In this document: positions 34,666-57,012 of the stretch, piece after piece
How the letters are laid out: the number at the start of each line of letters is the position of its first letter
Numbering within the stretch: the first letter of the stretch is position 1
Source of the DNA: Glycomyces terrestris
GTDB taxonomy: Bacteria; Actinomycetota; Actinomycetes; Mycobacteriales; Micromonosporaceae
Direction of reading: 5' to 3'
NCBI RefSeq assembly: GCF_003933745.1
Contig: NZ_RSEB01000002.1
Location: 806,001 to 870,000, forward strand
DNA length: 64,000 nt
Notes under the pieces: generated by a model
The model's database searches: none
What the model saw: the letters and a program-made list of their open reading frames with translations, nothing else
Told to the model about the DNA's origin: nothing
Program-made: the position numbers and the translations under genes

Positions 34666-37600
34666 ATGACTGAACCCGTTGCACCCCAAGAAGACCAATT
34701 GATCCTGCCGACCGCCTGGGCCAACCGCGCGCTCGCCCGCCGGGGCCGCGGCGGCAGGCCGTTCGTCCCGGAGGAGGACGCGGCCGAGCGGCTGCGCCGC
34801 AAGATCGACGGCCGCACCGGCAAGATCCGCCTCGCCCTCGCCCGCGAGGAGAACGCCCCCTACGCCGACGCGGCCGAGGACTTCATCGCCGGCAAGGCCG
34901 ACCCGCTCGGCGCCGCCGCCGTCGCCGCCCTCATGTGCGACGTCCACAGCCGGCACGACCAGTCCTGGATCCGCCCCGAATTCGACGCCTGGATCGGCAT
35001 GCACGGCGCCCCCTTCGCCGTCGCCGCCGTCGTCGCGCGCCTCGCCGTGCGCCACGAATACCACCGCGGCAACGACTACGAGCAGCGCGTCATCGTCGAG
35101 AACGACGTCCACTACAACAGCCCCCTCGTGCACGAATACGAGCAGGGCGCCCTCGCCGCCGTCCGCTCCCTCGTCGCCGGCCTCCCCGACGACGCCTACG
35201 CCGAGGCCGTCGCCCTCACCGCCCCGCTGCGCGACACCCCCATCAAGCGCATCGCCGCCGCGATCGTGCTCCCCGACGAGACCGCCTGGGTCGACGAGGC
35301 CGTGGCCGACTACGCGCAGCTGCGCTCCTACGGCTGGTCCGACCGCCTCTTCCTGCACTCGGTCACCAGCGTCGAGCAGTTCCAGGCCACCCAGGTCGGC
35401 GTCCTCAACGAGTACTACACCGACGCCGGCACCGTCGCCTCCCTCGTCGCCAACCTCGGCCCCGCCGCCCTCCCGATCCTCACCGCCCCCCTCGCCCAGC
35501 CCGGCCACCTCCCCGCCGAGTTCAAGAAGCTCCTCTACAAGGGCATCGCCCTGCTCCCCAGCGACGACGCGATGGCCTACCTGCTCGGGCACCTCGGCGA
35601 CGCCCACATCTTCGAGTCCGCCGCCGACGCCGCCGGGCGCTTCCCCCAGCGCGCCCTCCGCGTCCTCCTCAAGCGCGCCGCCACCGCCACGGGCGACGAC
35701 CGCCAGCGGCTCACCGCCGTCGCCGGCCTCATCGGCGACGCCGAGCGCGACCGCCTCGACGGGCCCGACCGCGAAGCCCTCGACGCCCTCCTCGCCGGCA
35801 GCGGCCGCGCCCCCGAGGCCGACCCCGCCGAACTCCCCGCCCTCCTCGTCTCCCCGCCCTGGACCGGCAGGCGCGCCAAGCGCACCCCCGTCGTCCTCGA
35901 CGGGCTGACCGCCCCTGAAGGCGTCGAGCTCCACTGGGCCCCGGGCGAGCGCGAGGAATGGGGCGGCCTGCGCGAATACTGGGACTACGACGAGGACGAC
36001 TTCGGCGACCTGTCCGGCCTCGAAGCCGACCACTGGCGCATCCAGTCCTTCCTCGCCTTCGGCGACCCCGAGCGGGCCGAGCCCTACCTCGACAAGTGGC
36101 TCGAACACGACTACAACGGCTACGAGCACACCATCCTGCGGATCGTCGCCCGCTACGGCGAGCGCGCCGTGCCCTGCGCCGTCGCCGCCGCCCGCCGCGA
36201 CGCCGCCTTCCTGCGCCTCCCCGGTCCCGTCCTCGGCCTCGACGCCGCCCGCCTCGCCGCCGAACGCCTCGACCGGCTCAAGTCCACCCGCGCCTCGGCC
36301 GCCAAGTGGTTCGAACGCCACGGCCTCGCCGCCGTCCCCTACCTCGTCCCCGACGCCCTCGGCACCGACAAGAAGCGGCGGCGGTACGCCGAGACCGCCC
36401 TCCTGCACCTCGCCCTGCGGCACGGCGCCGACCAGGTCGCCGCCGCGGCCGAGCCCCACGGGCCCGAAGCCGCCGCCGCGATCGCCGGCCTCCTCGCCGG
36501 CGACCCGCTCGAACCGCGCGGCGTCAAGGTCCCCAAGCCCGGCCCCTGGGCCTCCCCGGCCCTGCTCCCGCAGGTCCTGCTGGAAGGCGGCGAGCGCGCT
36601 CTGCCCGCCGAGTCCGTGCGCCACCTCCTCACCGTGCTCGCGCTGGCGACCCCCGAGTACCCGTACCCGGGCCTCGACGTCGTCGCCGCGGCCTGCGACC
36701 GGGCCTCGCTCACCCGCTTCGGCCGCGCCCTGTTCCAGCTGTGGCTCTCGGTCGGCGCGCCCGCGAAGGACGCGTGGGCGCTCACCCAGCTCGCCCACTT
36801 CGCCGCGGACGAGACGGTGTGGATGCTCGCCCCGCTCATCCGCGAGTGGCCCGGCGAGTCGCAGCACAAGCGGGCCGTCGCCGGCCTGGGCGTGCTCGGC
36901 GCGATCGGCTCCGACGAGGCGCTGCGCGCGATCCAGACCATCGCCGACCGCGTGAAGTTCAAGGCGCTCAAGGACGAGGCGGGCCGCCAGATCGCCCGCA
37001 TCGCCGCCGACCAGGGCCTGTCGCGCGACCAGCTCGCCGACCGGCTCGTGCCCGACTTCGGCCTCGGCGAGGACGCCGCGCTCGTCCTCGACTACGGGCC
37101 GCGCCGGTTCACCGTCGCCTTCGACGAGGCCCTCAAGCCGTTCGTCACCGACGAGACCGGCAAGCCCCGCAAGACCCTCCCCAAGCCCGGCGCGAAGGAC
37201 GACCCAGACCTCGCCCCCGCCGCGTACCAGCGGTTCACCGCCCTGAAGAAGGAGCTGCGGGCCGTCGCCGCCGACCAGATCTCCCGCCTCGAGGCGGCCA
37301 TGACCGGCGGCCGCACCTGGACGGCGGAGGAGTTCCGGCGCTACTTCGTGGAGCACGCCCTCACCCGGCACCTCGCGCGCCGCCTCGTGTGGCTCGCCGA
37401 GTCCGGAGGGGACCGCCTCGGCTTCCGCATCGCCGAGGACGGCACCTTCAGCGACGTCGAGGACGAGGCCCTGGACCTGCCCGCCGACGCCGCCGTGCGC
37501 GTCGCCCACCCCGCCCTCCTCGGCGAGGAGCAGGTGCGCGCCTGGGCCGAGATCCTCGCCGACTACGAGATCCTCCAGCCGTTCGACCAGCTCGACCGCC

Positions 37601-37983
37601 CCGTCCTGGCCTTCACCGAGGAGGAGCTGGCGACCGGCCGCCTCACCCGCTTCGAAGGGGCCACCGTGGACGTCGGCCGCGTCCTCGGCATGGTCAAGCG
37701 CGGCTGGCGGCGCGCCGCGCCCGAGGACGGCGGCGTCGAGCCCGGCATCGCCTACGCGCTGCCCGGCGGCGGCTACGTCACCGTCGCGCTCGACCCGGGC
37801 GTGTACGTCGGCGCCGTCGGCGAGTCCCCCGAGCAGACCGTCCGGAGCGTCCAGCTCACCGAGCACGAGCAGTACTGGTGGCGCCCGGAGGAGTACCCGA
37901 ACCGCAAGTACCCCAAGGACCTCGACGAGGTCGCCGCCGCCGAGGCGCTCGGCTCCCTGGCCCGCCTCACCGGACGTTCGTAA
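34666..37983 (+). CDS. DUF4132 protein 1 of 4 (YehI/MolR-like)
   Basis: 1,105 aa, soluble. It begins EPVAPQEDQLILPTAW, a short N-terminal motif shared by all four copies. The centre is alpha-helical repeat-like (HEAT/ARM appearance), with SVRHLLTVLALATPEYPYPG and VAGLGVLGAIGSDEALRAIQ. The C-terminal DUF4132 domain holds DYGPRRFTVAFDE, RKTLPKPGAKDD, FRIAEDGTFSDVED and the family signature DYEILQPFDQL at residue 966. No WGR domain is seen at the N-terminus, unlike what I recall for E. coli YehI/MolR. Start ATG 34666 has gaagga upstream. First gene of an eight-gene unit ending in the MoxR, DUF5682, VWA and SWIM genes. Function unknown. Confidence 0.9.
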   Translation: MTEPVAPQEDQLILPTAWANRALARRGRGGRPFVPEEDAAERLRRKIDGRTGKIRLALAREENAPYADAAEDFIAGKADPLGAAAVAALMCDVHSRHDQSWIRPEFDAWIGMHGAPFAVAAVVARLAVRHEYHRGNDYEQRVIVENDVHYNSPLVHEYEQGALAAVRSLVAGLPDDAYAEAVALTAPLRDTPIKRIAAAIVLPDETAWVDEAVADYAQLRSYGWSDRLFLHSVTSVEQFQATQVGVLNEYYTDAGTVASLVANLGPAALPILTAPLAQPGHLPAEFKKLLYKGIALLPSDDAMAYLLGHLGDAHIFESAADAAGRFPQRALRVLLKRAATATGDDRQRLTAVAGLIGDAERDRLDGPDREALDALLAGSGRAPEADPAELPALLVSPPWTGRRAKRTPVVLDGLTAPEGVELHWAPGEREEWGGLREYWDYDEDDFGDLSGLEADHWRIQSFLAFGDPERAEPYLDKWLEHDYNGYEHTILRIVARYGERAVPCAVAAARRDAAFLRLPGPVLGLDAARLAAERLDRLKSTRASAAKWFERHGLAAVPYLVPDALGTDKKRRRYAETALLHLALRHGADQVAAAAEPHGPEAAAAIAGLLAGDPLEPRGVKVPKPGPWASPALLPQVLLEGGERALPAESVRHLLTVLALATPEYPYPGLDVVAAACDRASLTRFGRALFQLWLSVGAPAKDAWALTQLAHFAADETVWMLAPLIREWPGESQHKRAVAGLGVLGAIGSDEALRAIQTIADRVKFKALKDEAGRQIARIAADQGLSRDQLADRLVPDFGLGEDAALVLDYGPRRFTVAFDEALKPFVTDETGKPRKTLPKPGAKDDPDLAPAAYQRFTALKKELRAVAADQISRLEAAMTGGRTWTAEEFRRYFVEHALTRHLARRLVWLAESGGDRLGFRIAEDGTFSDVEDEALDLPADAAVRVAHPALLGEEQVRAWAEILADYEILQPFDQLDRPVLAFTEEELATGRLTRFEGATVDVGRVLGMVKRGWRRAAPEDGGVEPGIAYALPGGGYVTVALDPGVYVGAVGESPEQTVRSVQLTEHEQYWWRPEEYPNRKYPKDLDEVAAAEALGSLARLTGRS

Positions 37984-37997
37984 ACCGCTCACGCGCG

Positions 37998-38020
37998 GGG
38001 TCGCCCCGGGGCCGTATCCT
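37998..38020 (+). promoter_or_regulatory. Weak possible promoter before DUF4132 gene 2
   Basis: GGGTCGCCC, 8 bases, TATCCT (38015-38020). It has the same spacing as the stronger promoters at 34607 and 44716 but matches only four of five core bases. It may be a decayed copy. Confidence 0.3.
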
Positions 38021-38053
38021 CGGGGCGGCACCCCCCACCCTGGAAAGACCGGT

Positions 38054-41000
38054 ATGTCTGCACAAGCGCCGCAAGAAGACCGCCTCGAACTCCCGGCGGC
38101 CTGGGCCGCGAAGCTCCTGCCGCGCCGCGGGAGCCGCACCGGGGAGCCCGTCGCGATCGACCCCGACGCCCCCGACCTCCTCGCCGAGCAGCTGGAGCTC
38201 CACGCCGAACTCGTCCCGCAGCTCCTGCGCATGAAGAAGAACCGGCCCTATCGGGATTCGATCAACGCCTTCCTCACCGGAGCGCCCGACCCCCGCGGCG
38301 CCGCCGCCGTCGGCACCCTCCTGGCCCACGCCGGCGGGCACACCTCCGGCTGGTGGAGCCGCCTCGAGACCCACGCCTGGGTCAAGGCGCACGGCCTGCC
38401 CTGGACCGTGCGCGCCGCGATCGAGCGGTACGCCCTCCAGACCAGCGGCTGGCACTCCGACGGCGCACGGCCCCCGCTCGAACACCTCCAGCTCACGCCC
38501 CCGCTCGGCTACGAGGGCCGGGCCGTCGAGGGCGACCTCGCCAACGGCGTCGTCGCCGAGCTGCGCGCGCTCCTCGCCGCCGCCTCCGACGAGGAGTACG
38601 CCGCCGTCGTCGCGGCCGCCGCCGAGCACCGCGACCACCCCGCGAAGCGCTTCGCCGCCGCGCTCCTCCTCCCGGACCAGGCCGACTGGGTCGCTGAAGT
38701 CTGCGCCGAGGCCCAGGGCCTCCACGCCTCGACCGCCACCCAGCCCATCCTCCTCCAATGCGCCAGCGACCCCGCCCACCTCGCGGCCGCCGGGGTGACC
38801 GATCTCGGCTACTACGAACTCGAACTGGAGTCCATCGCGGCCCTGGTGGACTCGCTCGGCGCCGCGAGCCTCCCGATCCTCGCCGCGACCCTCGAGAGCC
38901 CCTGGTACCTCAGCGCCGCCGTCCAGCGGCAGCTCATCAAGGCGATCGCGCTCCTCCCCGGCGACGAGGCCGCCGCCCACCTCGTCGCCAGGCTCGACAA
39001 GCCGTTCTACCTCGACGGGGCGATCGAGGCCGCCCGCCGCCACCCCGCGGCCGTCCTGCGCGCCGTCGCCGCCGCGGCCGGCCCCGCCTCCCCGGCCGAA
39101 CGCGGCCGCCTCGCCGTCGTCGCCGCCGCGGCCGGCCCCCTCGACCGCGTCCCCGCCGACGTGCGCGCCCCGATCGAGGGCCTCACCGCCGCCCTGCGCC
39201 CCGTCCCCGACGCCGACCCCGCCGACCTCCCGCCCCTCCTCGTCACTCCACCATGGACTGTCAAGCGCCGCAAGGCGAAACCGGTGGTCCTCGACCTCGA
39301 ACCGGTCGCCGAGGACCGGTTGGTCTGGGACGAGGAGCAGACCGCGCACGCCCAGCGCCTGCGCGAGACCTACGAACAGGAGCCCCGCGTCCTCGCCGAC
39401 TGGTCCCGGTTCGCCGCGAACCGCACCTCGAACGCGTACGACTACCGCCTCGCCCAGATCGCGGCCTACGGCCCCGACGGCGTGGCCGAGCGCATGTTCG
39501 CCGACTGGGCCGCCCACGCCGCCGAGTCCTACCCGAGCGACGTCGAGGCGATCCTCCACCGCCACGGCACCGCCGCGATCGCCCCCGCCCTGCTCGTCGC
39601 CGAGCGCTGGGGCTGCTCCGACTTCGTCCTCCCGATGTTCAGCGCCGACACCGCCAGGTTCGTCGCCGGCCGCTACGCCCGGCGCAAGACCGAGCGCGCC
39701 GCCGCGGCCGCCTGGTTCGCGCTCCACGGCCTCGCCGCCGCCACCGCGCTCGTCCCCGACGCCCTCGGCGCCGACCGGAAGCACCGCCGCCACGCCGAGA
39801 CCGCGCTCGCCCACCTCGCCACGGTCCACGGCGCCCCCGCCGTCGTCGCCGCCGCCGAACCCTACGGGCCCGAAGCGGCCCGGGCGATCGCCGCGTTCTT
39901 CGACGGCGACCCGCTCGAACCGCGCGGCGTCACGGTCCCCAAGCCCGGCCCGTGGGCCGCGCCCGCGATGTTCCCGCAGGTCCTCCTCGAAGGCGGCGGC
40001 CGGGCGCTCCCGGAGGACTCGGTGCGCCACCTCCTGACCGTCCTCGCGCTGGCCGCCCCCGACTACCCCTACCCGGGGCTCGACGTCGTCGCCGAGACCT
40101 GCGACCGGGCCTCCCTCGCCCGCTTCAGCCGCGCCGTCTTCGAGCAGTGGCTCGCCGTCGGCGCGCCCGCGAAGGACCAGTGGGCGCTCACGCAGCTCGC
40201 GCACTTCCCCGAGGACGAGACCGTGTGGCTCCTCGCCGCGCGCCTGCGCGAATGGCCCGGCGAGGGCCAGCACAAGCGCGCCGTCACCGCCCTCGGCGTG
40301 CTCGGCGCGATCGGCACCGAGGAGGCGCTGCGCGCCGTCCAGACCACCGCCGGCAAATCGAACTACCAGGGCCTCATGTGGGAGGCGACCGAGCAGGTCG
40401 AGCGCATCCGGAAGGAGCTGGGCCTCACCGCCGAGCAGCTCGCCGACCGCCTCGTGCCCGACTTCGGCCTCGGCGAGGAGGGCTCCCGCGTCGTCGACTA
40501 CGGCCCGCGGAAGTTCACCGTCGCCTTCGACGAGCAGCTCAAGCCCTACGTCGTCGACGAGTCCGGCAAGGCCCGCAAGAGCCTTCCCCGACCCGGCGTC
40601 AAGGACGACGCGGTCGTCGCCGAAGACGCCCACCGGCGCTTCCAGGCGTTCCGCAAGGAACTCAAATCCGTTGCCGCCGAACAGGTCTCGCGCCTGGAGT
40701 CGGCCATGACCACCGGCCGCTCCTGGGCCGTGGGGGAGTTCCGCCGCTACTGCGTCGAGCACGCCCTCACCGGCCTCCTCGCCCGCCGCCTCGTCTGGCT
40801 CGCCGAGCACGACGGCGCCTCGACCGAGTTCCGCATCGCCGAGGACGGCACCTTCTCCGACGTCGACGACGACGCGTTCGACCTCCCCGAGGACGCCGCC
40901 GTCCGCCTCGCCCACCCCGCGCTCCTCGGCGACCGGGTCGGCGCCTGGGCCGAAGTGCTCGCCGACTACGAGATCCTCCAGCCCTTCGACCAGCTCGACC

Positions 41001-41368
41001 GGCCCGTCGACGCGTTCACCGAGGCCGAGCTCGCGACCGGCGTCGTCGAGCGCTTCACCGGCGCCGTCGTCGCCACCGGCCGCGTCCTCGGCCTCGCCAA
41101 GCGCGGCTGGAACCGCGCCTGGCCCGGCGACGGCGGCCTCGTCCCCGGCTGCACGTACCTCCTCGGCAGCGGCTGCTTCCTCGTCCTCTCGGTCGCACCC
41201 GGCATCTCGCTCGGATACGCCGCCGAGCACCCGGAGCAGACCGTCGCCTCGGTCCGCTTCTGCGACAGGGAGACCTTCGGCGCCGACCCCGTCCCGCCGA
41301 CCGCCCCGATCGACCCCGTCGCCGCCGCCGAAGCCCTCGGCTCGCTCGCCCGCCTCGTCCGCGCCTGA
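38054..41368 (+). CDS. DUF4132 protein 2 of 4
   Basis: 1,104 aa. N-terminus SAQAPQEDRLELPAAWAAKL. It shares with copy 1 the central repeat block (SVRHLLTVLALAAPDYPYPG, LGVLGAIGTEEALRA) and the C-terminal domain, with DYGPRKFTVAFDEQLKPY, FRIAEDGTFSDVDDDAFDLP and DYEILQPFDQL at residue 971. It differs most in the first 400 residues, where the copies would be expected to specialise. ATG 38054 with ggaaag upstream, 70 nt after copy 1. No signal peptide or membrane helix. No function is known for the family beyond the old molybdate-regulator name of MolR. Confidence 0.9.
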   Translation: MSAQAPQEDRLELPAAWAAKLLPRRGSRTGEPVAIDPDAPDLLAEQLELHAELVPQLLRMKKNRPYRDSINAFLTGAPDPRGAAAVGTLLAHAGGHTSGWWSRLETHAWVKAHGLPWTVRAAIERYALQTSGWHSDGARPPLEHLQLTPPLGYEGRAVEGDLANGVVAELRALLAAASDEEYAAVVAAAAEHRDHPAKRFAAALLLPDQADWVAEVCAEAQGLHASTATQPILLQCASDPAHLAAAGVTDLGYYELELESIAALVDSLGAASLPILAATLESPWYLSAAVQRQLIKAIALLPGDEAAAHLVARLDKPFYLDGAIEAARRHPAAVLRAVAAAAGPASPAERGRLAVVAAAAGPLDRVPADVRAPIEGLTAALRPVPDADPADLPPLLVTPPWTVKRRKAKPVVLDLEPVAEDRLVWDEEQTAHAQRLRETYEQEPRVLADWSRFAANRTSNAYDYRLAQIAAYGPDGVAERMFADWAAHAAESYPSDVEAILHRHGTAAIAPALLVAERWGCSDFVLPMFSADTARFVAGRYARRKTERAAAAAWFALHGLAAATALVPDALGADRKHRRHAETALAHLATVHGAPAVVAAAEPYGPEAARAIAAFFDGDPLEPRGVTVPKPGPWAAPAMFPQVLLEGGGRALPEDSVRHLLTVLALAAPDYPYPGLDVVAETCDRASLARFSRAVFEQWLAVGAPAKDQWALTQLAHFPEDETVWLLAARLREWPGEGQHKRAVTALGVLGAIGTEEALRAVQTTAGKSNYQGLMWEATEQVERIRKELGLTAEQLADRLVPDFGLGEEGSRVVDYGPRKFTVAFDEQLKPYVVDESGKARKSLPRPGVKDDAVVAEDAHRRFQAFRKELKSVAAEQVSRLESAMTTGRSWAVGEFRRYCVEHALTGLLARRLVWLAEHDGASTEFRIAEDGTFSDVDDDAFDLPEDAAVRLAHPALLGDRVGAWAEVLADYEILQPFDQLDRPVDAFTEAELATGVVERFTGAVVATGRVLGLAKRGWNRAWPGDGGLVPGCTYLLGSGCFLVLSVAPGISLGYAAEHPEQTVASVRFCDRETFGADPVPPTAPIDPVAAAEALGSLARLVRA

Positions 41369-41386
41369 TCCCCGAAGGAACCACCG

Positions 41387-44674: not shown

Positions 44675-44715
44675 CCCCGGCGCTCCGCGTCGTTCGAGGA
44701 CCGCAGCGGGGCGGG

Positions 44716-44738
44716 ATGTCGCACCCGGACTCTATGAT
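44716..44738 (+). promoter_or_regulatory. Promoter of DUF4132 gene 4, PafBC-type pattern
   Basis: ATGTCGCAC (44716-44724), 8 bases, TATGAT (44733-44738), with GCGTCGTTCGA again upstream (44687-44697). Distance to the start codon (34 nt) is nearly that of gene 1 (37 nt). It would drive copy 4 and the four genes behind it. Confidence 0.6.
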
Positions 44739-44771
44739 CTGGGGGAGCCTCCCGCCCCGTGAAGGACCGAG

Positions 44772-47700: not shown

Positions 47701-48128
47701 CCGCGGTCTTCGCCGACTACGAGGTCATCCAGCCGTTCGACCAGCTCACGCGCCCCGCACTCCGCTTCACCGCCGACGAGCTCGAGACCGGCCGCCTCAC
47801 CCGCTTCGACGGCCTCCAGGCCCGCTACGCCGAGCTCGACGAACGCCTCGGCTGGACCCAGGTCTACCGCTCCGCCGACGAGCCGGCCGCCTGGGTCTGG
47901 CGCCTCCAGCGGCCCGTCCCCGGCGGCTGGATCCTCGCCGACGCGACCCCCGCCCCCGACCGCACCGACCCCGACCCGGACCTGGTCCACACCGTCACCG
48001 CCGTCCGGCTCCAGGCGAACCGCAACCGCCACCCGAAGCACGCCCGCCCGCTCCCCGGCCGCGCGATCGACCCGGTCGCCGCCGCCGAACTCCTCGCCCG
48101 ACTCTCCGGCCACACCCGCACCAGCTAG
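44772..48128 (+). CDS. DUF4132 protein 4 of 4
   Basis: 1,118 aa. N-terminus TEAVAAQEDQLILPAEWTAW, nearest to copy 1, but with an extra Arg/Gly/Pro segment around residues 35-75. The body is the most diverged: SVRHLL becomes TVRHLVAALALWTPRLPFPG, and DYEILQPFDQL becomes DYEVIQPFDQL (residue 982). RKALPKPGVRDD and FRIAEDGGFADVED are kept. It has its own promoter and is 10 nt from the ATPase gene, so it is the paralogue most tightly tied to the MoxR-DUF5682-VWA-SWIM part. It may be the ancestral copy. Confidence 0.9.
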   Translation: MTEAVAAQEDQLILPAEWTAWLLPRRGRGTGIPVEPDGAVRDDVARAGGPARNGRPGIDSADRTTPPDLAEASRNAAAVAASRRADLVAALELPECAPDLGRAGLAHLNGEPSPLGAAVVLTLMRYAKPYSGCLFNSGGEHAAANRELFAAVVADHGLPFAVAAAIEELEIDTHWGSSNGWGPDGIPTVGPGGFSTLKWLVVWSDPAGVLPLARGLVAAADDDEYRRIVAAAAAHRDTPLKRIAAAMLLPDERDWVAAACEDRTAYAPNGLMGNADVQRSVWSAMSGADHLRASGLTALAQHHVRPALVAELTANLGAAALPVFAKTLGRASLELGQRTLLYRAISLLPSDEAAEFLVEQAAQPGALAAVKPAAARFPHRFARAVAAKAAGLPAADRFRLAGALRQDEVPLDDVLKGLDADARPAVEALLAEAAPAVAAPEQLPAALAAPPWAERRRRRPLDPVPGLHAPAGVEIVWPAGAQEAALAVEPAFAEWDEDTFWFTDAETGIGFADRLLGRLARGGAAEAAFVLEKLRNAPKHASALVPIRSAAAAALAADWFARLKSARVHAADWLDHHGAHAVPYLVPCALGEDKRLRDGGEAALRHLARRLGDRAVLDAAAPSGPAALARVEALLATDPRVPLAGAVTPGAWADPAMLPPVMLRGNELALPADTVRHLVAALALWTPRLPFPGVDDFAAHCDPASLRRFSLALFDLWLRAEAPAKDSWAVDQLGAFGDDETVAVLGPLVASWPGRSQNDRALTGLDVLAHIGTEAAFTALRDISRSFKYANGTSERARELAAGIAAARGLTYEGLADRLLPDHGVPGPLAFDYGPRRFHLTFDRLLTPRLTDDDGRPRKALPKPGVRDDAAAAKAAAARYKALVKTVETTAEEQAELLRDAMLGGRVLTLDDLRVLDAHPITGVFTRRLAWYSRGAGFRIAEDGGFADVEDREFAPDPAAIRLAHPGLLGDDTAAWAAVFADYEVIQPFDQLTRPALRFTADELETGRLTRFDGLQARYAELDERLGWTQVYRSADEPAAWVWRLQRPVPGGWILADATPAPDRTDPDPDLVHTVTAVRLQANRNRHPKHARPLPGRAIDPVAAAELLARLSGHTRTS

Positions 48129-48138
48129 AAAGAAACCC

Positions 48139-49227
48139 ATGAGCGACACCGCAACCGCCGAACCGCGCCTCCAGCGGCCCCCCGCCGAGCAGCGCTACGC
48201 CGACGAGCTCGCCAAGCTCGCCGCCGAGGACGACGCCCCGCGCCCGCCCGGCTGGGCCCTGAGCCTCCAGGCCGCCCGCACCTTCATCGTCGGCGACGAG
48301 TCCCGCGGCATCGCCAAGAAGTTCGTCGGCGACCCCTCCCTCATCGACCGCGGCCTCGTCACCCTCGCCACCAGCCGCGGCCTCATGCTCGTCGGCGAGC
48401 CCGGCACCGCCAAGTCCCTGCTGTCCGAGCTCATCGCCGCCGCCGTCTCCGGCGACTCCACCCTCACCATCCAGGGCGGCGCCTCCACCACCGAGGACCA
48501 GATCGCCTACTCCTGGAACTACTCCCTGCTCGTCTCCGAGGGCCCCACCCAGCGCGCGCTCGTCCCCGCGCCCCTCCTGCGCGGCATGGCCGAAGGCCGC
48601 GTCGTCCGCTTCGAGGAGATCACCCGCTGCCCCCTCGAAGTCCAGGACTCGCTCCTGTCGCCGCTCTCCGACCGCGTGCTCGCCATCCCCGAGCTCGAAG
48701 GCGACTCCATGGTCTTCGCCCGCGAGGGCTTCAACATCATCGCCACCGCCAACACCCGCGACCGCGGCGTCAACGAGATGAGCGCGGCCCTCAAGCGCCG
48801 CTTCAACTTCGAGACGGTCTTCCCCATCGCCGACTTCAAGACCGAACTCGACCTCGTCGAGCACGAGGCCGCGAACGCGCTGGCCCGCTCGGGCGTCCCG
48901 CAGGCCCCCTCCCGCGACGTCCTCGAAGTCCTCGTCCGCGTCTTCCGCGACCTCCGCGTCGGCGACGCGGGCGGCGGCCGCCCCCAGGCCGTCATGTCCA
49001 CCGCCGAGGCCGTCTCCGTCGCGCACGCCGTCGGCATCAAGGCGTGGTACCTGCGCGGCGGGGTCGCCGAGGCCGGCGACATCGTCGACTGCATGGCCGG
49101 CGCCGCCGCCAAGGACTCCTCGGAGGACCTCGCGCGCCTGCGCCGCTACCTGGAGCAGAAGGCCCCCAAGCGCAAGGGCCCGCACTGGCAGTCGCTGTAC
49201 CAGGCCCGGAACCTGCTGCCGGGATGA
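48139..49227 (+). CDS. MoxR-type AAA+ ATPase (YehL-like)
   Basis: 362 aa. The AAA+ core has Walker A GEPGTAKS at residues 86-93, Walker B VVRFEEI at 155-161, where the usual Asp-Glu is Glu-Glu, and a sensor-1 Asn in IIATANTRDRG near residue 209. MoxR ATPases work with VWA proteins as chaperone-like machines that remodel or load metals into large partners. ATG 48139 lies 10 nt after DUF4132 copy 4 behind a aagaaa stretch; the stop overlaps the DUF5682 start (ATGA). The much longer open frame reaching back to 45799 is an overlap inside copy 4 and is not used. Confidence 0.94.
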   Translation: MSDTATAEPRLQRPPAEQRYADELAKLAAEDDAPRPPGWALSLQAARTFIVGDESRGIAKKFVGDPSLIDRGLVTLATSRGLMLVGEPGTAKSLLSELIAAAVSGDSTLTIQGGASTTEDQIAYSWNYSLLVSEGPTQRALVPAPLLRGMAEGRVVRFEEITRCPLEVQDSLLSPLSDRVLAIPELEGDSMVFAREGFNIIATANTRDRGVNEMSAALKRRFNFETVFPIADFKTELDLVEHEAANALARSGVPQAPSRDVLEVLVRVFRDLRVGDAGGGRPQAVMSTAEAVSVAHAVGIKAWYLRGGVAEAGDIVDCMAGAAAKDSSEDLARLRRYLEQKAPKRKGPHWQSLYQARNLLPG

Positions 49228-51494
49228 TCGACCGCCTCCACGTCCAGGGGGTGCGGCACCACTCGCCCGCCTGCGCCCGCCTCGTCGCCGCGCGCATCGA
49301 GGAGCTGCGGCCCGCGGCCGTGCTCATCGAGGGCCCGGCCGACTTCAACGACCGGCTCGACGAGCTCGCGCTCGAACACGAACTGCCCGTGGCGATCTAC
49401 TCGTACGCGAGCACCGGCACCGCCGTGCGTCGCTCGTGGACCCCGCTGTGCGACTACTCTCCCGAGTGGACGGCGCTGACCGAGGGCCGCCGCGCCGGCG
49501 CGCAGGTGCGGTTCATCGACCTGCCCGCCTGGCACGACGCCTTCGACGGGGTCGAGAACCGCTACTCCGACGCCGAGCGGCGCTACACCGAGGCCACCGA
49601 CCGCCTCTGCGCCGCCTTCAGCGCCGACAACCAGGACGCCCTGTGGGACCACCTGGTCGAGAACGCCGACCCGGACGGGCTCGCCGAGCGCCTCGACCAC
49701 TACTTCGACCTCGTGCGCGGCGAGGCCGACGCGAACGGCGCCGACACCGCCCGCGAAGCCCATATGGCCCAGTGGATCCGCGCGGCCCTCGCCGAGCACG
49801 AGGGCCCCGTCCTGGTCGTGTGCGGCGGCTTCCACGCGCCCGCGCTGCGCCGCCTCGCCGCGGCCGACGGCCCGGCCGCCCCGGAGGTCCCGCGGCCCCC
49901 GGACGGCACCGATGTCGGCGGGTTCCTCGTCCCGTACTCGTTCAAGCGCCTCGACGCGTTCGCGGGCTACCAGTCCGGGATGCCCTCGCCCGAGTACTAC
50001 CAGCGCCTGTGGGAGGACGGCCCCGCCGTCGCGGCCGGCGCGCTCATGGAGCGCATCACGACCCGCCTGCGCGGCAAGGGACTCCACGTCTCCACCGCCG
50101 ACCTCATCGGCGCCCGCGCCCTCACCGACGGCCTCGCGCGCCTGCGCGGCCACACCGTGCCGGGCCGCACCGACCTCCTCGACGGCCTCGCCAGCGCCCT
50201 CGTCAGCGACGACCTGGAGGGCCCGCTGCCGTGGACGCGGCGCGGGCCCCTCACGGCCGGAACGCATCCGGTCGTCGTCGAGATGACCGCGGCGCTCACC
50301 GGCGAACGGGTCGGCTGGCTCCACCCCGACACGCCCGCGCCGCCCCTCGTGGCCGACGCGCAGGCCGAGATGGAGCGCCTGGGCCTCGACAAGGACGGGA
50401 CGCTCCGCCTCGACCTGGCCCGCCCGGGCGACCTCGAGCGCAGCCGCGTCCTCCACTGCCTGCGGCTCCTCGCCGTCCCCGGCGTGCGCCGCGACGACGG
50501 GCCCGCCGCGGGCGCCGACGTCACGGCCGAGGAGCACTGGACGCTGCGCCCGGTCGACGACCGGCTCCCGGCGCTCATCGAGGCCGGCGCGCTCGGCGCG
50601 ACCCTCGGCGACGCCGCCCAGACCGTCCTCGAGCAGCGCCTCGACCGCGACGGCGCCCTGGAAGCCTTGGCTGCCATCCTGTTCGACGCGGCCCTGTGCG
50701 GGCGCGCGCACCTGACCGACCGCCTCGGCGCGGCCGTCGAGGCGGCCGTGGCCGAGTCGAGCGACCTCGCCGCGGTCGGCCAGGCCCTCGCGGTCGCGCT
50801 CGCGCTGTGGCGCCACGACCACCTGTTCGGCACCGCCGGCAGCGACCTGTACGGCTCGGTCGTCACCGCCTGCTGCGACCGCGTCCTGTGGCTCGCCGAG
50901 GGGCTCCACGCCGCGCCCGGGCCGGCCGAGCCCGGCCGCCTGCGGGCGCTCGTGGCCCTGCGCGACGCCGTGCGGCACGCCCCGGGCCTGGCCCCGGCCG
51001 CCGGGACCGTGACGGGCGCGGCCGACCGGATCGCGCTCGACCCGCAGGCCCCGCCGGACCTGCGCGGCGCGGCCCTGGGCCTCGCCTGGGCGCTCGGCGC
51101 GCCCGCCGACGCCGCCGCGGCGGCCGAGGGCGCGGCCGCCCCCGAGCGCCTCGGCGACTGGCTCGCCGGCCTGTTCTCCCTCGCCCGCGAGGAGGTCGCG
51201 GCCGAGGACGAGGGCGTCATCGCCGCCGTCGACGAGCTCGTCGGCGACCTGAACGAGGCCGAGTTCCTCGAAGCGCTCCCCGCGCTGCGCCACGCGTTCG
51301 CGATGTTCCCGCCGCGCGAGCGCGGCCTCATCGCGGAGCGGGTCGTCGCCCTCCGCGGCGGCGGCGACGCGGCCGACCTGACCAAGCGCCTGGACGTCGA
51401 CCCGGTGACCGTGGCGGCGTCCCTCGCCCTCGAAGCCCGGGTCGACCTCGTCCTGGGCCGCGAGAACCTCCTATTCGGATCGGAGACGGCATGA
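49224..51494 (+). CDS. DUF5682 protein (YehM-like), possible TraB/EreA-like hydrolase fold
   Basis: 756 aa, close to the length I recall for YehM (about 759). The N-terminal 210 residues carry GVRHHSPACARLV with paired His at residues 12-13, LIEGPADFND with E36-G37-P38, and VVCGGFHAPAL with His 204. This pattern recalls the TraB/TIKI/EreA hydrolase-like fold, but I see it by eye only. The rest is helical. Soluble. It overlaps the ATPase before and the VWA gene after (ATGA on both sides), so equal-ratio synthesis is likely. Function unknown. Confidence 0.85.
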   Translation: MIDRLHVQGVRHHSPACARLVAARIEELRPAAVLIEGPADFNDRLDELALEHELPVAIYSYASTGTAVRRSWTPLCDYSPEWTALTEGRRAGAQVRFIDLPAWHDAFDGVENRYSDAERRYTEATDRLCAAFSADNQDALWDHLVENADPDGLAERLDHYFDLVRGEADANGADTAREAHMAQWIRAALAEHEGPVLVVCGGFHAPALRRLAAADGPAAPEVPRPPDGTDVGGFLVPYSFKRLDAFAGYQSGMPSPEYYQRLWEDGPAVAAGALMERITTRLRGKGLHVSTADLIGARALTDGLARLRGHTVPGRTDLLDGLASALVSDDLEGPLPWTRRGPLTAGTHPVVVEMTAALTGERVGWLHPDTPAPPLVADAQAEMERLGLDKDGTLRLDLARPGDLERSRVLHCLRLLAVPGVRRDDGPAAGADVTAEEHWTLRPVDDRLPALIEAGALGATLGDAAQTVLEQRLDRDGALEALAAILFDAALCGRAHLTDRLGAAVEAAVAESSDLAAVGQALAVALALWRHDHLFGTAGSDLYGSVVTACCDRVLWLAEGLHAAPGPAEPGRLRALVALRDAVRHAPGLAPAAGTVTGAADRIALDPQAPPDLRGAALGLAWALGAPADAAAAAEGAAAPERLGDWLAGLFSLAREEVAAEDEGVIAAVDELVGDLNEAEFLEALPALRHAFAMFPPRERGLIAERVVALRGGGDAADLTKRLDVDPVTVAASLALEARVDLVLGRENLLFGSETA

Positions 51495-52633
51495 GCGCCG
51501 ACCTCGAACGCTGGCGGCTCATCCTCGGCCCCGCCGCCGAGCGCAGCACCGGCGGGCTCAGCCAGGAGAACGCCGGCCGCGACGCCGCCCTCGACTGGCT
51601 CTACGGCCGCGACGACGACCTCGGCAAGCGCGACGTCCGCCGCGGCGGCGCCCGCGGCGACTCCGACGACCGCAGCGGCGGCGACGGCGACTCCATCGTG
51701 ACCACCGTGGACTGGCTCGACACCATCCACCGGCTGTTCCCGAAGGAGACGATCGAGCGCCTCGAACGCGACGCGATCGAGCGCTACCAGATCAACGACG
51801 TGCTCACCGACCCCGAGGTCCTGGGCCGCATCGAACCGAACCCGGCCCTGCTCAAGGCCGTGCTCCAAACCAAGCACCTGATGAACCCGGCCGTGCTCGC
51901 CGCCGCCCGGCGCATCGTCGAGGAGGTCGTGCGCCAGCTGGTCGAGAAGCTCTCCGTGCAGGTCCGCACCGTGTTCACCGGCAGCCGCTCGCGCAAGCCG
52001 AGCTTCCACCGCCGCGCCCGCGACTTCGACCTCAAGCGCACCCTCAAAGCCAACCTGAAGCACTACCGGCCCGAGGACCGCCAGGTCGCGATCGAGCGCC
52101 CCCACTTCCACTCGCGCACCTCCAAGCGCCTGGAGCAGTGGCAGCTGGTGCTCCTGGTCGACCAGTCCGGGTCGATGACGAGCTCGGTCATCCACTCGGC
52201 CGTCACCGCCGCGTGCCTGTACGCCCTCCCGGGCCTGAAGACCCACCTGGTCGCGTTCGACACCAACGTGGTCGACATGACCTCCGAAGTGGACGACCCG
52301 GTGGAGCTGCTCATGAAGGTCCAGCTCGGCGGCGGCACCGACATCGCCCGGGCCGTCGAGTACGCGGCCGGCCTCATCGAGAACCCGCGCCGCTCGATCG
52401 TCGCGCTCATCACCGACTTCTACGAGGGCGGCAGCGAGGCCCGCCTCGTCCACACCACCAAGCAGCTGTGCGAGCAGGGCACCCAGTTCCTCGGCCTCGC
52501 GGCCCTGGACGAGGAGGCCAACCCCTCCTACGACCGCAACCTCGCCAAGCGCATGTCCGACGTCGGCGCCCACATCGGCGCGATGACGCCCTCCCACCTG
52601 GTCGAATTCGTGGCGGAGAGGCTCGGCACATGA
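51491..52633 (+). CDS. VWA-domain protein with intact MIDAS (YehP-like)
   Basis: 380 aa. The N-terminal 210 residues are charged and helical, with a disordered Gly/Asp segment near residues 50-66. The C-terminal VWA domain has a full metal site: D224-Q-S226-G-S228 (LVDQSGSMTSS), Thr 283 in GGGTDIARA and D309 in ALITDFYEGG. VWA proteins of this kind bind MoxR ATPases and hand on substrates. The arrangement resembles CoxE/YehP proteins. Start overlaps DUF5682; 51 nt separate it from the SWIM gene. Confidence 0.94.
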   Translation: MSADLERWRLILGPAAERSTGGLSQENAGRDAALDWLYGRDDDLGKRDVRRGGARGDSDDRSGGDGDSIVTTVDWLDTIHRLFPKETIERLERDAIERYQINDVLTDPEVLGRIEPNPALLKAVLQTKHLMNPAVLAAARRIVEEVVRQLVEKLSVQVRTVFTGSRSRKPSFHRRARDFDLKRTLKANLKHYRPEDRQVAIERPHFHSRTSKRLEQWQLVLLVDQSGSMTSSVIHSAVTAACLYALPGLKTHLVAFDTNVVDMTSEVDDPVELLMKVQLGGGTDIARAVEYAAGLIENPRRSIVALITDFYEGGSEARLVHTTKQLCEQGTQFLGLAALDEEANPSYDRNLAKRMSDVGAHIGAMTPSHLVEFVAERLGT

Positions 52634-52684
52634 GCGGCCCGCACCCCCTGCCCGCCGCGCTCACCTCCCCGAACCGGAGCCACC

Positions 52685-54628
52685 GTGTCCAGAAGTGACC
52701 TCCTCGCCCTGACCCAGGACGCCCTTGCGGCCCTTGCAAACCGCGGCCTCGTCAAGCGCGCCGCGAAGGACCTCGACGCCGGGACCGCCCCCGAGCTCAG
52801 CCTCGACGGCGACGGCGCCCTCACCGCCGTCTTCCCCGACGGCGCCACCGCCGTCCTCCCGGCCGCGGGCGGCCTCGAGACCGCCACCTGCACCTGCGGC
52901 GCGGCCGGCAAGTGCCGCCACCGCGTCGGCGCCGTCCTCGCCTACCAGCGCGAGCACACCGCCGCGGCCCCCGCGGCCGAGGCCGAGGCGGCCCCCGACG
53001 AGCCCGTGATCACCACGCCCGCGGTCATCACCGACGACGAGCTCCGCGCCGCCCTCGGCCCCCACGCCCTCAAGGCCGCCGAGGCCACCCGCAAGGCCGG
53101 CTACACCGCCCGCCTCACCTGGCCCGGCCCCGACCGGCCCGCCGCCGCCGAGCTGCCCGCCGCCACCGTCAGCTTCCTCGTCCCCGGCCTCGGCTACGTC
53201 CACACCGACGCCACCGGCCCCGCCCGCGACACCGCGATCGTCCTCGCCGTCTGGGCCTTCCGCGAGGCCGGGCCCGACGCGGCGACCGTCAGCGTCGGCG
53301 GCGCGAACCCCGAGGAGACCCTCGCCGAGTCCGTCGCCCTCGCCCGCCAGGTCCTCCTCGACGGCGCCGCCGGCGCCGACGCCGTCCTGCGCGCCGCCCT
53401 CCAGCGCGAGGCCAAGGCCCTCACCCGCCGCCGCGCCCACTGGCCCGCCGGCGCCGTGAACGACCTCATCGACCAGCTCCAGCGCTACGAGGACCGCTCC
53501 GCCGCCTACGACCCGCACCGCCTCGCCGTCCTCCTCGCCGAGATCCCCGCCCGCGCCCGCGCCGCCGCCCACCCGCAGGGCACGCCCGCCGCGCACGTCC
53601 TCGGCAGCGAGGAGGCCGACGCGACCCCGCTGACCCTCGTGCGCCTCACCGGCCTCGGCGCCCGCGTCGGCACCGAGGGCGACCGCCGCACCCTCGAGCT
53701 CTACCTCGCCCAGCCCGAGACCGGCATGGTCCTCTCCATCAAGCGCGACTGGACGATCCCCGAAGGCGAGACCCTCACCGGGGCCGACGTCGCCGCCCGC
53801 CGCCTCGCCGGCTGCCGCATCGGATCCCTCGCGGCCGGCAACACCGTCACCGAGGCCGCCACCCGCACCGCCGCCCGCGCCCTCAAGCTCGGCACCGGCC
53901 GCCTCGCCAAGACCCAGGTCCTCCCGCTCGGCCTGGCCTGGAACGACCTGCCGTCCTCCTTGCGCGCCACCGACCTCGACGCGCTGGCCGCGGAGCTCGC
54001 CGAGCGCCCGCCCGCGCTCGTGCGCCCGCGCGTGGCCGCCGAGTCCCTGCGCGTCCTCGCGGTCGCCGAGACCGAGCTCCTCGGCTACGACCCGGCCTCC
54101 CAGCGCCTTCACGCCCTGGTCGCCGGGACCGACGGCGGCTCGGCGATCGTCCGGATCGGCCACACCTCGGCCGCGCCCGGCGCGCTGGAGGCCGCCGAGG
54201 CCGCGCTCGCCGCCGGGCCGCTCGCCGTCGCCGGGCACGTCCACCGCCACCGCGGCCGCCTCATCGTCGAGCCGACGGCGATCCTCACCGCCGACGGCCC
54301 GGTCGTCCCGGACCTCGCGCCCGGCGACGACTCCGCGGACCTCGCCGCCGCCGGGGACGCCGCCGCCTCCGAGCCCGTCTCGGCCGTCATCGAGGAGGCG
54401 ATCGCGGTGTGCGCGGACCTGGCGCACCAGGGCCTGCGCCGCTCCCGCGAGCCCTCCCGGGTCCGCGTCGAGGCCGCCGCCGCCGCGCTGAACAAGGTCG
54501 GCCTTCAGAGGGCCGCAACGGATTTCGTGCACCTGTCCAAAGCGTTGGGCGATGAGGACGAGGCCGCCAAGGGCGCGGCGTGGACGGCCGCCGCCGTCCG
54601 GATGCTGGTCACCGCTGAGCTACACTAG
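52685..54628 (+). CDS. SWIM zinc-finger protein (YehQ-like)
   Basis: 647 aa. The SWIM finger is C69-T-C71-GAAGK-C77-R-H79, the CxCx(n)CxH zinc pattern used for DNA or protein binding. It is followed by a long helical and mixed region, ending VRVEAAAAALNKVGLQRAAT. GTG 52685 with ggag upstream; the 51-bp gap contains no terminator, so it is the last gene of the unit. SWIM proteins often act in DNA repair or recombination, which would fit the damage-type promoters, but this is inference. Confidence 0.9.
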   Translation: MSRSDLLALTQDALAALANRGLVKRAAKDLDAGTAPELSLDGDGALTAVFPDGATAVLPAAGGLETATCTCGAAGKCRHRVGAVLAYQREHTAAAPAAEAEAAPDEPVITTPAVITDDELRAALGPHALKAAEATRKAGYTARLTWPGPDRPAAAELPAATVSFLVPGLGYVHTDATGPARDTAIVLAVWAFREAGPDAATVSVGGANPEETLAESVALARQVLLDGAAGADAVLRAALQREAKALTRRRAHWPAGAVNDLIDQLQRYEDRSAAYDPHRLAVLLAEIPARARAAAHPQGTPAAHVLGSEEADATPLTLVRLTGLGARVGTEGDRRTLELYLAQPETGMVLSIKRDWTIPEGETLTGADVAARRLAGCRIGSLAAGNTVTEAATRTAARALKLGTGRLAKTQVLPLGLAWNDLPSSLRATDLDALAAELAERPPALVRPRVAAESLRVLAVAETELLGYDPASQRLHALVAGTDGGSAIVRIGHTSAAPGALEAAEAALAAGPLAVAGHVHRHRGRLIVEPTAILTADGPVVPDLAPGDDSADLAAAGDAAASEPVSAVIEEAIAVCADLAHQGLRRSREPSRVRVEAAAAALNKVGLQRAATDFVHLSKALGDEDEAAKGAAWTAAAVRMLVTAELH

Positions 54629-54724: not shown

Positions 54725-55881
<1,157 letters not shown>

Positions 55882-55885
<4 letters not shown>

Positions 55886-56835: not shown

Positions 56836-57012
56836 GCCGGGATTGTATGGCGTCCATGCCGCCGCACCCCTCACCGCCGCGTCCTGGGAGGCCTCGGACC
56901 GGTTGCGGGGCCCCGAAACCGAACGCGACACGCGCTCGGTGCGAGAATCCGGAATCCCGGGGCCGCTGATTGTATTCTGGTGGCTGTGGGTGCAATTCGC
57001 TATCATGAGGCC

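What the first reader, a model, noticed from the sequence alone, without database searches (positions are those of the whole stretch)
34666..54628. Eight-gene DUF4132x4-MoxR-DUF5682-VWA-SWIM operon: an uncharacterised ATPase system
Seen: eight co-oriented genes over 20 kb. Gaps are 70, 18, 97 and 10 bp up to the ATPase, then two 4-bp overlaps and a 51-bp gap. All key motifs are intact (Walker A/B, sensor 1, complete MIDAS, CxC...CxH). Known: MoxR ATPases act with VWA proteins as remodelling chaperones. From memory, the same five families occur as yehI-yehL-yehM-yehP-yehQ in E. coli, none with a proven function, so the set is kept together across distant phyla. Inference: the MoxR-VWA pair acts on the large DUF4132 helical-repeat proteins, with DUF5682 as a possible hydrolase and SWIM as a nucleic-acid contact.
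Basis: partly seen in the sequence, partly recalled or inferred. Interest (0 to 1): 0.9.

Follow-up and report, generated by a model that had tools for sequence, protein, structure and literature searches.

The report
Conserved chaperone machine, fast-changing partner proteins
A twenty-kilobase gene cluster encodes a probable protein-remodelling machine that is kept together in bacteria as distant as soil actinobacteria and E. coli, nearly always beside large, rapidly changing partner proteins, which suggests that the unexplained E. coli yeh operon recognises something that keeps changing.

Summary
In detail: eight co-oriented genes (four DUF4132, MoxR AAA+ ATPase, DUF5682, VWA, SWIM) with the stated gaps. 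It is the YehL-type MoxR system: E. coli K-12 has yehI-L-M-P-Q in the same order, at 65/56/41/31-34/31% identity for MoxR/VWA/DUF5682/DUF4132/SWIM. A survey anchored only on MoxR found all five families co-oriented in 70 of 80 loci from four phyla.

New here: (1) the DUF5682 N-terminal domain looks like a Tiki/TraB/ChaN-superfamily hydrolase (each line modest alone). (2) DUF4132 is predicted to be an ARM/HEAT-like solenoid plus a conserved C-terminal alpha/beta domain. (3) DUF4132 copies vary in number and have the highest dN/dS of the operon genes tested, in Glycomyces and in three of three E. coli comparisons.

Best reading: a constant AAA+/VWA/hydrolase/zinc machine working on diversifying recognition proteins. 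An immune-type role is inferred only: PADLOC has no match at E <= 0.01 for the eight proteins, and positive selection is not shown. DNA-damage or housekeeping roles remain open.

The parts
34666..37983 (+). DUF4132 copy 1 (1105 aa); Pfam domain at residues 832-1014
   Evidence: 50% identical to copy 2 and 51% to copy 3
38054..41368 (+). DUF4132 copy 2 (1104 aa)
   Evidence: dN/dS 0.78 against its best match in L213
41387..44674 (+). DUF4132 copy 3 (1095 aa); predicted ARM/HEAT-like solenoid (about 38-785) plus C-terminal alpha/beta domain (about 790-1060)
   Evidence: model pLDDT 89.9, fold matches
44772..48128 (+). DUF4132 copy 4 (1118 aa), the most divergent of the four, beside MoxR
48139..49227 (+). 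YehL-type MoxR AAA+ ATPase (362 aa)
   Evidence: 65% identical to E. coli YehL
49224..51494 (+). DUF5682 / YehM family (756 aa)
   Evidence: 41% identical to E. coli YehM; model pLDDT 86.1
49224..49973 (+). N-terminal domain of DUF5682 (residues 1-250): Tiki-superfamily-like alpha/beta domain with H12, H13, E36, R177, E178, H204; the rest is mostly helical
51491..52633 (+). VWA (CoxE-like) protein with complete MIDAS, YehP family (380 aa)
   Evidence: 56% identical to YehP
52685..54628 (+). SWIM zinc-finger protein, YehQ family (647 aa, GTG start); motif CTCGAAGKCRH at residues 69-79
   Evidence: 31% identical to YehQ

Best explanation
A YehL-type AAA+ remodelling system with a constant machine and changing recognition proteins. 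Shown by sequence: MoxR ATPase, VWA protein, DUF5682 and SWIM protein form a conserved core under purifying selection; DUF4132 is the variable, multi-copy part. Predicted: DUF5682 carries a Tiki-superfamily-like hydrolase domain followed by a mostly helical arm; DUF4132 is a long ARM/HEAT-like solenoid with a conserved C-terminal alpha/beta domain. Inferred mechanism: the variable N-terminal solenoid of each DUF4132 binds a changing target (a foreign or damage-associated protein or nucleic-acid complex); its conserved C-terminal half docks on the machine; the VWA protein, through its metal-dependent adhesion site, hands the loaded DUF4132 to the MoxR ring; ATP hydrolysis remodels it and thereby brings the target to, or switches on, the DUF5682 hydrolase; SWIM, and WGR where present, provide zinc- or DNA-dependent localisation. 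Several DUF4132 copies give one machine several specificities.
For: All five families co-oriented in 70 of 80 MoxR-anchored loci: DUF5682 in 80, DUF4132 in 76, VWA in 74, SWIM in 72. Same order in E. coli. 20 of 22 same-genus genomes, own included, have this MoxR; in 17 fetched same-genus stretches MoxR is 87-98%, DUF5682 68-93%, and (16 of 17) VWA 78-95% and SWIM 65-89% identical, while DUF4132 copies are 34-79% identical and number 3-5. dN/dS against L213: MoxR 0.14, VWA 0.13, DUF5682 0.19, SWIM 0.28, but DUF4132 copies 2-4 0.78, 0.60, 0.70, with residues 1-500 at 1.08, 0.83, 0.80; controls outside the operon: malic enzyme 0.09-0.22, ADP-ribosylglycohydrolase 0.26-0.31. E. coli repeats the ranking: yehI 0.20-0.27 is the highest of the yeh genes compared in each of three strains; yehL 0.03-0.07, yehP 0.05-0.08, yehM 0.11, yehQ 0.09-0.20, metG 0.01-0.02. 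Frames stay open: of 68 DUF4132 ORFs in the 17 stretches, 9 are cut by a stretch edge, 52 of the other 59 are 1000 aa or longer, 7 are 758-983 aa. Hydrolase: H12, H13, E36, R177, E178 and H204 in 21 of 21 aligned DUF5682 proteins of several system types; over 24 N-terminal domains the families matched by most members after DUF5682 are ChaN (8) and TraB (4), both Tiki superfamily, in register in the window protein.
Against: No physical interaction was tested. No dN/dS is significantly above 1, so weak constraint could explain part of it; NG86 with third-position GC of 95-98% underestimates dS in all genes alike. The N-to-C contrast is not universal: copy 4 has 0.90 in residues 781-1060 against L213, and in E. 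coli the N-terminal half has the higher dN in three of three comparisons but also the higher dS, so its ratio is higher in only one of three (0.24 against 0.12; 0.20 against 0.20; 0.24 against 0.37); allelic exchange may contribute. For strain 07_3636 the yehI and yehQ intervals overlap. In E. coli the locus is near-core (yehL matched in 5171 of 5426 genomes), unlike patchy defence systems. PADLOC: no match at E <= 0.01 (one at 0.018). Profile comparison of DUF5682 with TraB is weak (probability 9, P 0.0036) and with erythromycin esterases not significant; a single-member match to an unrelated family (CBM46, E 0.0041) scores as well as the best ChaN match (0.0049), and GATase_3 matches the same stretch. 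H13 is only nearly invariant in the 44- and 24-row alignments, and H204 in the 24-row one. Three loci (L086, L088, L113) show no DUF4132 within the fetched flank.
Confidence: 0.43

Rival explanations
1. Housekeeping maturation chaperone: MoxR-VWA, as in RavA-ViaA or CoxD-CoxE, folds or loads a cofactor into DUF4132, which is itself an enzyme whose active site lies in the conserved C-terminal domain; DUF5682 and SWIM are assembly factors.
For: MoxR-VWA pairs of known function are described as maturation chaperones (passages of PMC3893208 and PMC7159879). The DUF4132 C-terminal half is the conserved one, with H887, R911, H938, D955, Y956 and Q964 in all 44 aligned sequences. Near-core in E. coli. 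Flanking genes look ordinary.
Against: Does not readily explain 3-5 diverging copies with N-terminal dN/dS near 1 beside conserved partners. Four further DUF4132 copies lie elsewhere in the genome with no core gene found in the fetched flanks.
Confidence: 0.27
2. DNA-damage or nucleic-acid stress response: WGR and SWIM bring the system to damaged DNA and the machine removes or cleaves proteins bound there.
For: A WGR-type N-terminus is matched on DUF4132 in 31 of 80 loci; Pfam confirms WGR on 3 of 5 DUF4132 proteins tested and on YehF. [quoted passage not shown]
Against: No WGR in the window copies at E <= 0.1 nor in the own genome at E <= 0.001. Three one-mismatch SOS-box-like matches in the window lie inside genes and are no more than chance.
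Confidence: 0.15
3. Anti-phage or other conflict system in the strict sense (overlaps the best explanation), with DUF4132 as receptors and DUF5682 as the effector.
For: Fast-evolving multi-copy partner beside a conserved AAA+ core, the general pattern of MoxR-vWA conflict systems (passages of PMC7159879); carriage on plasmids typed as conjugative (Sinorhizobium, Allorhizobium) or mobilisable (Iodobacter), in the last with restriction-modification genes just downstream.
Against: PADLOC models give no match at E <= 0.01; no clear defence-island context in the part scanned; fixed, near-core chromosomal site in E. coli; no typical toxic effector.
Confidence: 0.3
4. Relaxed constraint: DUF4132 copies are decaying duplicates.
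For: K-12 yehH is a pseudogene and E. coli strains show DUF4132 and core genes annotated as broken. dN/dS is nowhere significantly above 1, and copy 4 is high in its C-terminal part too (0.90). 7 of 59 uncut Glycomyces copies are shorter than 1000 aa.
Against: 52 of 59 uncut Glycomyces copies keep frames of 1000 aa or more. The C-terminal parts of copies 2 and 3 stay at 0.51 and 0.39 while their N-terminal parts are at 1.08 and 0.83 (against L213).
Confidence: 0.1

Closest known systems
E. coli yehI-yehL-yehM-yehP-yehQ cluster (YehL subfamily of MoxR)
   Same: Same five families in the same order; MoxR 65%, VWA 56% identical; three tandem DUF4132 in strain CMZE065. YehL is one of seven MoxR subfamilies (passage of PMC3893208).
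   Different: Window has four DUF4132 copies and no WGR domain or yehK; DUF4132 and SWIM are only about 31-34% identical. Annotated as putative or uncharacterised in K-12.
MoxR-vWA ternary conflict systems (VMAP, iSTAND, FtsH, beta-propeller classes; PMC7159879, passages only)
   Same: AAA+ MoxR plus vWA core with variable partners that often carry repeats.
   Different: Partners here are DUF5682, DUF4132 and SWIM; a search of that paper's main text for YehL, SWIM, DUF4132, WGR and MolR gave no hit.
RavA-ViaA MoxR-VWA chaperone
   Same: MoxR ATPase with a VWA partner from one operon (passage of PMC3893208).
   Different: A different MoxR subfamily; that its operon has no DUF5682, DUF4132 or SWIM is recalled.
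DUF5691-MoxR-DUF5682 loci (Deinococcus, Methylosinus, Rhizobium, Hymenobacter)
   Same: Share MoxR and DUF5682; VWA annotated in three of four (not listed for Methylosinus) and SWIM in two of four (Deinococcus, Methylosinus).
   Different: DUF5691 stands where DUF4132 does; MoxR only 44-45% identical (Deinococcus and Hymenobacter); 0 of 80 YehL-type loci match the three DUF5691 queries.
Tiki/TraB/ChaN/erythromycin-esterase superfamily
   Same: GxxH, E, R and a second GxxH in the same order and similar spacing; N-terminal fold matches two Tetrahymena complex IV chains at Z 9.6 and 9.3, a complex reported to hold a TraB-family protein (figure legend of PMC10060162).
   Different: Fused to about 500 mostly helical residues and part of a MoxR-VWA operon; sequence support is weak taken singly.

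Membership tests
YehL subfamily of MoxR AAA+ systems | MoxR close to E. coli YehL rather than to other MoxR proteins | tested here: met
   65% identity over 359 residues; E. coli YehL and the window fall in one set of 84 rows (96/91) apart from the three other MoxR rows included; other MoxR subfamilies were not in the tree
YehL subfamily of MoxR AAA+ systems | Linked DUF4132, DUF5682, VWA and SWIM genes | tested here: met
YehL subfamily of MoxR AAA+ systems | ATPase activity and ring assembly | not testable with these tools
   Walker A/B, sensor and arginine motifs intact
MoxR-vWA ternary conflict systems | Third component VMAP, iSTAND, FtsH or vWA-fused beta-propeller | tested here: inconclusive
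   No such Pfam family among the eight proteins over its cut-off; bpMoxR and nSTAND1 only below cut-off; no dedicated VMAP profile was run
MoxR-vWA ternary conflict systems | Diversifying partner beside a conserved MoxR-vWA core | tested here: met
   positive selection itself not shown
Tiki/TraB/ChaN/Ere hydrolase superfamily (for DUF5682 residues 1-250) | Two His motifs, Glu and conserved basic residue in order | tested here: met
   invariant in 21 of 21; same order in TraB and Ere alignments; H13, and in one alignment H204, nearly invariant in larger sets
Tiki/TraB/ChaN/Ere hydrolase superfamily (for DUF5682 residues 1-250) | Significant profile similarity | tested here: inconclusive
   ChaN best E 0.0049 in 8 of 24, TraB 0.013 in 4 of 24, but CBM46 0.0041 in 1 of 24; hhalign P 0.0036 for TraB, 0.25 for Ere
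Tiki/TraB/ChaN/Ere hydrolase superfamily (for DUF5682 residues 1-250) | Shared core fold | tested here: inconclusive
   Z 9.6, 180 aligned, 4.6 A to 8b6h_DQ over residues 1-218; that this chain is the TraB-family subunit is inferred from a figure legend
Known anti-phage defence systems (PADLOC) | Match to a PADLOC model | tested here: not met
   No match with E <= 0.01 for any of eight proteins; one at 0.018

The most novel reading that the evidence does not exclude
A further class of MoxR-vWA recognition systems: arrays of fast-evolving ARM/HEAT-like receptors (DUF4132) feed one conserved AAA+/VWA machine that unleashes or supplies a Tiki-superfamily hydrolase (DUF5682), spread from actinobacteria to E. 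coli.
Probability: 0.32. Interest if true: 0.87.

Novelty: new variant of a known kind. Interest (0 to 1): 0.62.

Why it matters
yehL, yehI and yehQ are matched in 95-98% of 5426 complete E. coli genomes (5171, 5283 and 5300; with at least 80% coverage 5160, 5177 and 5267), yet the K-12 proteins are annotated as putative or by domain only. Showing that the cluster is one five-part set conserved over four phyla, with a probable hydrolase and a fast-changing client or receptor, turns an annotation gap into specific experiments. If the recognition reading holds, it adds a class to AAA+-driven recognition systems in the most studied bacterium.

Tried and rejected
SOS control of the operon: three one-mismatch matches to an actinobacterial-style box (motif recalled), all inside genes and not above chance. 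Defence-island context: of 198 downstream ORFs of 150 aa or more found by a simple coding score in 66 loci, 125 were selected (at most two per locus) and 108 of these scanned with PADLOC and Pfam. The 17 left out were dropped by eye as likely repeats from related species, without a check. PADLOC (E <= 1e-10) matched 31 families, 25 listed: one (mad2) in three proteins, the others shown in one protein each, many of them versions of one model name (PD-T4-6); no matched control was run and upstream flanks were not scanned. Solved relatives by sequence: none at E <= 10 for the DUF5682 profile, DUF4132 copy 3 or SWIM. A TraB profile does not find the Tetrahymena chains in the PDB by sequence. Foldseek gave no match with E <= 0.001 for DUF5682 and six, all helical-repeat proteins, for DUF4132; the DUF4132 C-terminal domain was barely tested by these searches and is not claimed as a new fold. 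Recent arrival of the window operon by transfer was not pursued: GC is even over the operon and 20 of 22 same-genus genomes have the MoxR. In one search the values for copy 1 against L213 and L214 compare paralogues, because the likely counterpart is cut by the fetched stretch; they are not used. In one search protein 4 was given in a wrong frame, so its empty result means nothing. Literature: no paper in the held library has both DUF4132 and MoxR, none has DUF5682, three have DUF4132; subscription papers are largely missing, and a 2006 review recalled as defining MoxR subfamilies was not seen.


Full report
What is there. Pfam gives DUF4132 four times, an AAA_5 (MoxR-type) ATPase, DUF5682, a CoxE-like VWA protein and a sub-threshold SWIM finger. 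The DUF4132 copies are tandem paralogues, 36-51% identical over the aligned parts. Upstream lie divergent TetR and two small multidrug resistance genes, downstream a malic enzyme and a convergent ADP-ribosylglycohydrolase.

It is the E. coli yeh system. In MG1655 the order is yehF (WGR), yehH (pseudogene), yehI (DUF4132), yehK, yehL (MoxR), yehM (DUF5682), yehP (VWA), yehQ (SWIM). Identity to the window falls in a gradient: MoxR 65%, VWA 56%, DUF5682 41%, DUF4132 31-34% (C-terminal part only), SWIM 31%. Sinorhizobium and Allorhizobium plasmids have the five with DUF4132 between DUF5682 and VWA; an Iodobacter plasmid has two DUF4132 genes before MoxR.

Conservation survey. A profile of seven YehL-type MoxR proteins was the only anchor in a scan of one genome for each of 84,980 species. 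With phmmer at E <= 1e-5 and more than 60 bits on the MoxR strand, DUF5682 is in 80 of 80, DUF4132 in 76, VWA in 74, SWIM in 72, all five in 70. Of the ten others, five lie on stretches cut short by contig ends (L080, L096, L114, L119, L145), two have further DUF4132 genes after DUF5682 that fill the 10-kb flank (L076, L079), and three show no DUF4132 (L086, L088, L113; L088 also no SWIM). In the MoxR tree the 80 rows are Actinomycetota 64, Pseudomonadota 12, Myxococcota 3 and Acidobacteriota 1; the actinobacterial rows form one side of a branch (100/98), which fits mostly vertical descent inside that phylum. The window sits beside Glycomyces artemisiae and G. dulcitolivorans. Because the best-scoring 80 were kept, the count says how constant the YehL type is, not how common it is.

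Related systems. MoxR-DUF5682-VWA is a wider core: 21 of 296 actinobacterial genomes have DUF5682, and in most of the loci fetched MoxR and VWA lie beside it without DUF4132 or SWIM by these queries; in some DUF5682 and VWA share one frame. In Deinococcus, Methylosinus, Rhizobium and Hymenobacter DUF5691 stands before MoxR; SWIM is annotated in the first two and VWA in all but Methylosinus.

DUF5682 is probably a hydrolase. The AlphaFold2 model (44 sequences, pLDDT 86.1) has an N-terminal alpha/beta domain and then mostly helices. Across 21 proteins of different system types R11, H12, H13, E36, R177, E178 and H204 are invariant; in a 44-row alignment H13 is nearly invariant, and in a 24-row one H13 and H204 are. 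TraB proteins show GxxH, E, R and GxxH in the same order and similar spacing; erythromycin esterases show G44 and H286 as invariant and H48, E76 and R257 as nearly invariant columns. Over 24 N-terminal domains, the Pfam families matched by most members after DUF5682 are ChaN (8, best E 0.0049) and TraB (4, best E 0.013), both of the Tiki superfamily, at the same place in the window protein; GATase_3 matches two members there too, and CBM46 matches one member at E 0.0041. hhalign pairs the R...GxxH stretch with TraB (P 0.0036) and, without significance, with Ere. The best VIA-align rows for residues 1-218 are 8b6h_DQ (Z 9.6) and 7w5z_E (Z 9.3), chains of Tetrahymena complex IV, a modest score; a figure legend of PMC10060162 says this complex contains a TraB-family protein, but that these chains are that subunit is inferred. 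In a Tiki-family protease two His and two Glu are essential and a nearby basic residue is conserved (passages of PMC6254334). Together this is good but not decisive evidence.

DUF4132. The model of copy 3 (42 sequences, pLDDT 89.9) is a helical solenoid to about residue 785 and an alpha/beta domain at about 790-1060; fold matches are helical-repeat proteins, none over Z 11. Among 44 sequences from Glycomyces to E. coli the mean share of the commonest residue is 0.30-0.43 over residues 1-500 and 0.53-0.66 over 501-1000, with H887, R911, H938, P939, D955, Y956, P961 and Q964 in all 44. A WGR-type N-terminus is matched in 31 of 80 loci, but not in the window copies or the own genome. Four more DUF4132 genes lie elsewhere in this genome, with no core gene found in the fetched flanks.

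The fast part and the slow part. 20 of 22 same-genus genomes, own included, hold the YehL-type MoxR at 87% identity or more. In 17 fetched same-genus stretches MoxR is 87-98% and DUF5682 68-93% identical to the window, VWA 78-95% and SWIM 65-89% in the 16 that reach them, while DUF4132 copies are 34-79% identical and number 3-5 (some alignments are partial, and the 20-kb limit makes copy numbers lower bounds). NG86 dN/dS against L213, the relative with the most similar MoxR, is 0.13-0.28 for the four core genes and 0.60-0.78 for DUF4132 copies 2-4; residues 1-500 give 1.08, 0.83 and 0.80, residues 781-1060 give 0.51, 0.39 and 0.90. L214 gives 0.11-0.26 for the core and 0.68-0.74 for copies 2-4. 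Copy 1 could not be compared with a true counterpart there. The malic enzyme gives 0.09-0.22 in four Glycomyces loci and the ADP-ribosylglycohydrolase 0.26-0.31 in three. Third-position GC is 95-98% in all eight genes, so the bias in dS is shared. In E. coli yehI has the highest ratio of the yeh genes compared in each of three strains: yehI 0.20-0.27 (three), yehL 0.03-0.07 (three), yehP 0.05-0.08 (two), yehM 0.11 (one), yehQ 0.09-0.20 (two), metG 0.01-0.02 (two); genes annotated as broken were left out. There the N-terminal half of yehI has the higher dN in all three but also the higher dS, so its ratio is higher in only one; exchange of divergent alleles is a possible cause. No value is significantly above 1, so positive selection is not shown; but 52 of 59 uncut Glycomyces copies keep frames of 1000 aa or more, so the proteins are maintained.

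Function. MoxR-VWA pairs are described as remodelling client complexes (passages of PMC3893208 and PMC7159879). A conserved remodelling core with a probable hydrolase, beside solenoid proteins that duplicate and diverge while their C-terminal part stays more alike, is best read as one machine serving changing recognition proteins. What is recognised is unknown. Against a classical defence system stand the lack of PADLOC matches, ordinary-looking downstream flanks and the near-core status in E. coli (yehL, yehI and yehQ matched in 5171, 5283 and 5300 of 5426 genomes); for it stand the evolutionary pattern and plasmid carriage. A damage-response reading has support from Deinococcus regulation (passage of PMC8533742) and WGR domains elsewhere, but no SOS-like site above chance was found here.

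Verdict. Not a new kind of machine, but a new variant among MoxR-VWA systems, with two features that I did not find in print in the searches made: the Tiki-like domain of DUF5682 and the fast evolution of DUF4132.

Noticed in passing
G000 loci L057-L060 (C12:151885, C12:35946, C11:388385, C8:598302): Four further DUF4132 genes stand elsewhere in the genome; in a tree printed without support values one (L060) groups with an in-operon copy of Glycomyces artemisiae that has no counterpart in the window operon.
   Followed up: partly
L233-L235, L063 (E. coli): Between metG and yehL the four E. coli strains seen carry one to three intact DUF4132 genes; K-12 yehF and yehH may be remnants of further copies. 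Core genes are annotated as broken in some strains: yehM in two, yehP in one, yehQ in one.
   Followed up: partly
L067-L070: A sister system with DUF5691 before MoxR and DUF5682 sits on plasmids of Deinococcus, Hymenobacter, Rhizobium and Methylosinus.
   Followed up: partly
L048, L049, L051, L061, L071: Actinobacterial DUF5682 proteins with a VWA domain in the same reading frame, next to MoxR.
   Followed up: no
window 54725-57006: Malic enzyme and a convergent ADP-ribosylglycohydrolase follow the operon; matches were found in 4 of 4 and 3 of 4 Glycomyces loci examined, so this looks like plain synteny.
   Followed up: partly
downstream flanks in alignment A7: Three of 108 flanking proteins match DUF2201 (putative metallopeptidase and VWA-like domains) and two match AAA_5, possibly another MoxR-VWA pair next door.
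   Followed up: no
window 33328-34522: Divergent TetR regulator with two adjacent small multidrug resistance genes just upstream of the operon.
   Followed up: no
L072 (MT835988.1): A 14-kb gut contig labelled as phage encodes a MoxR 41% identical to the window protein; the record is unverified and unannotated.
   Followed up: no
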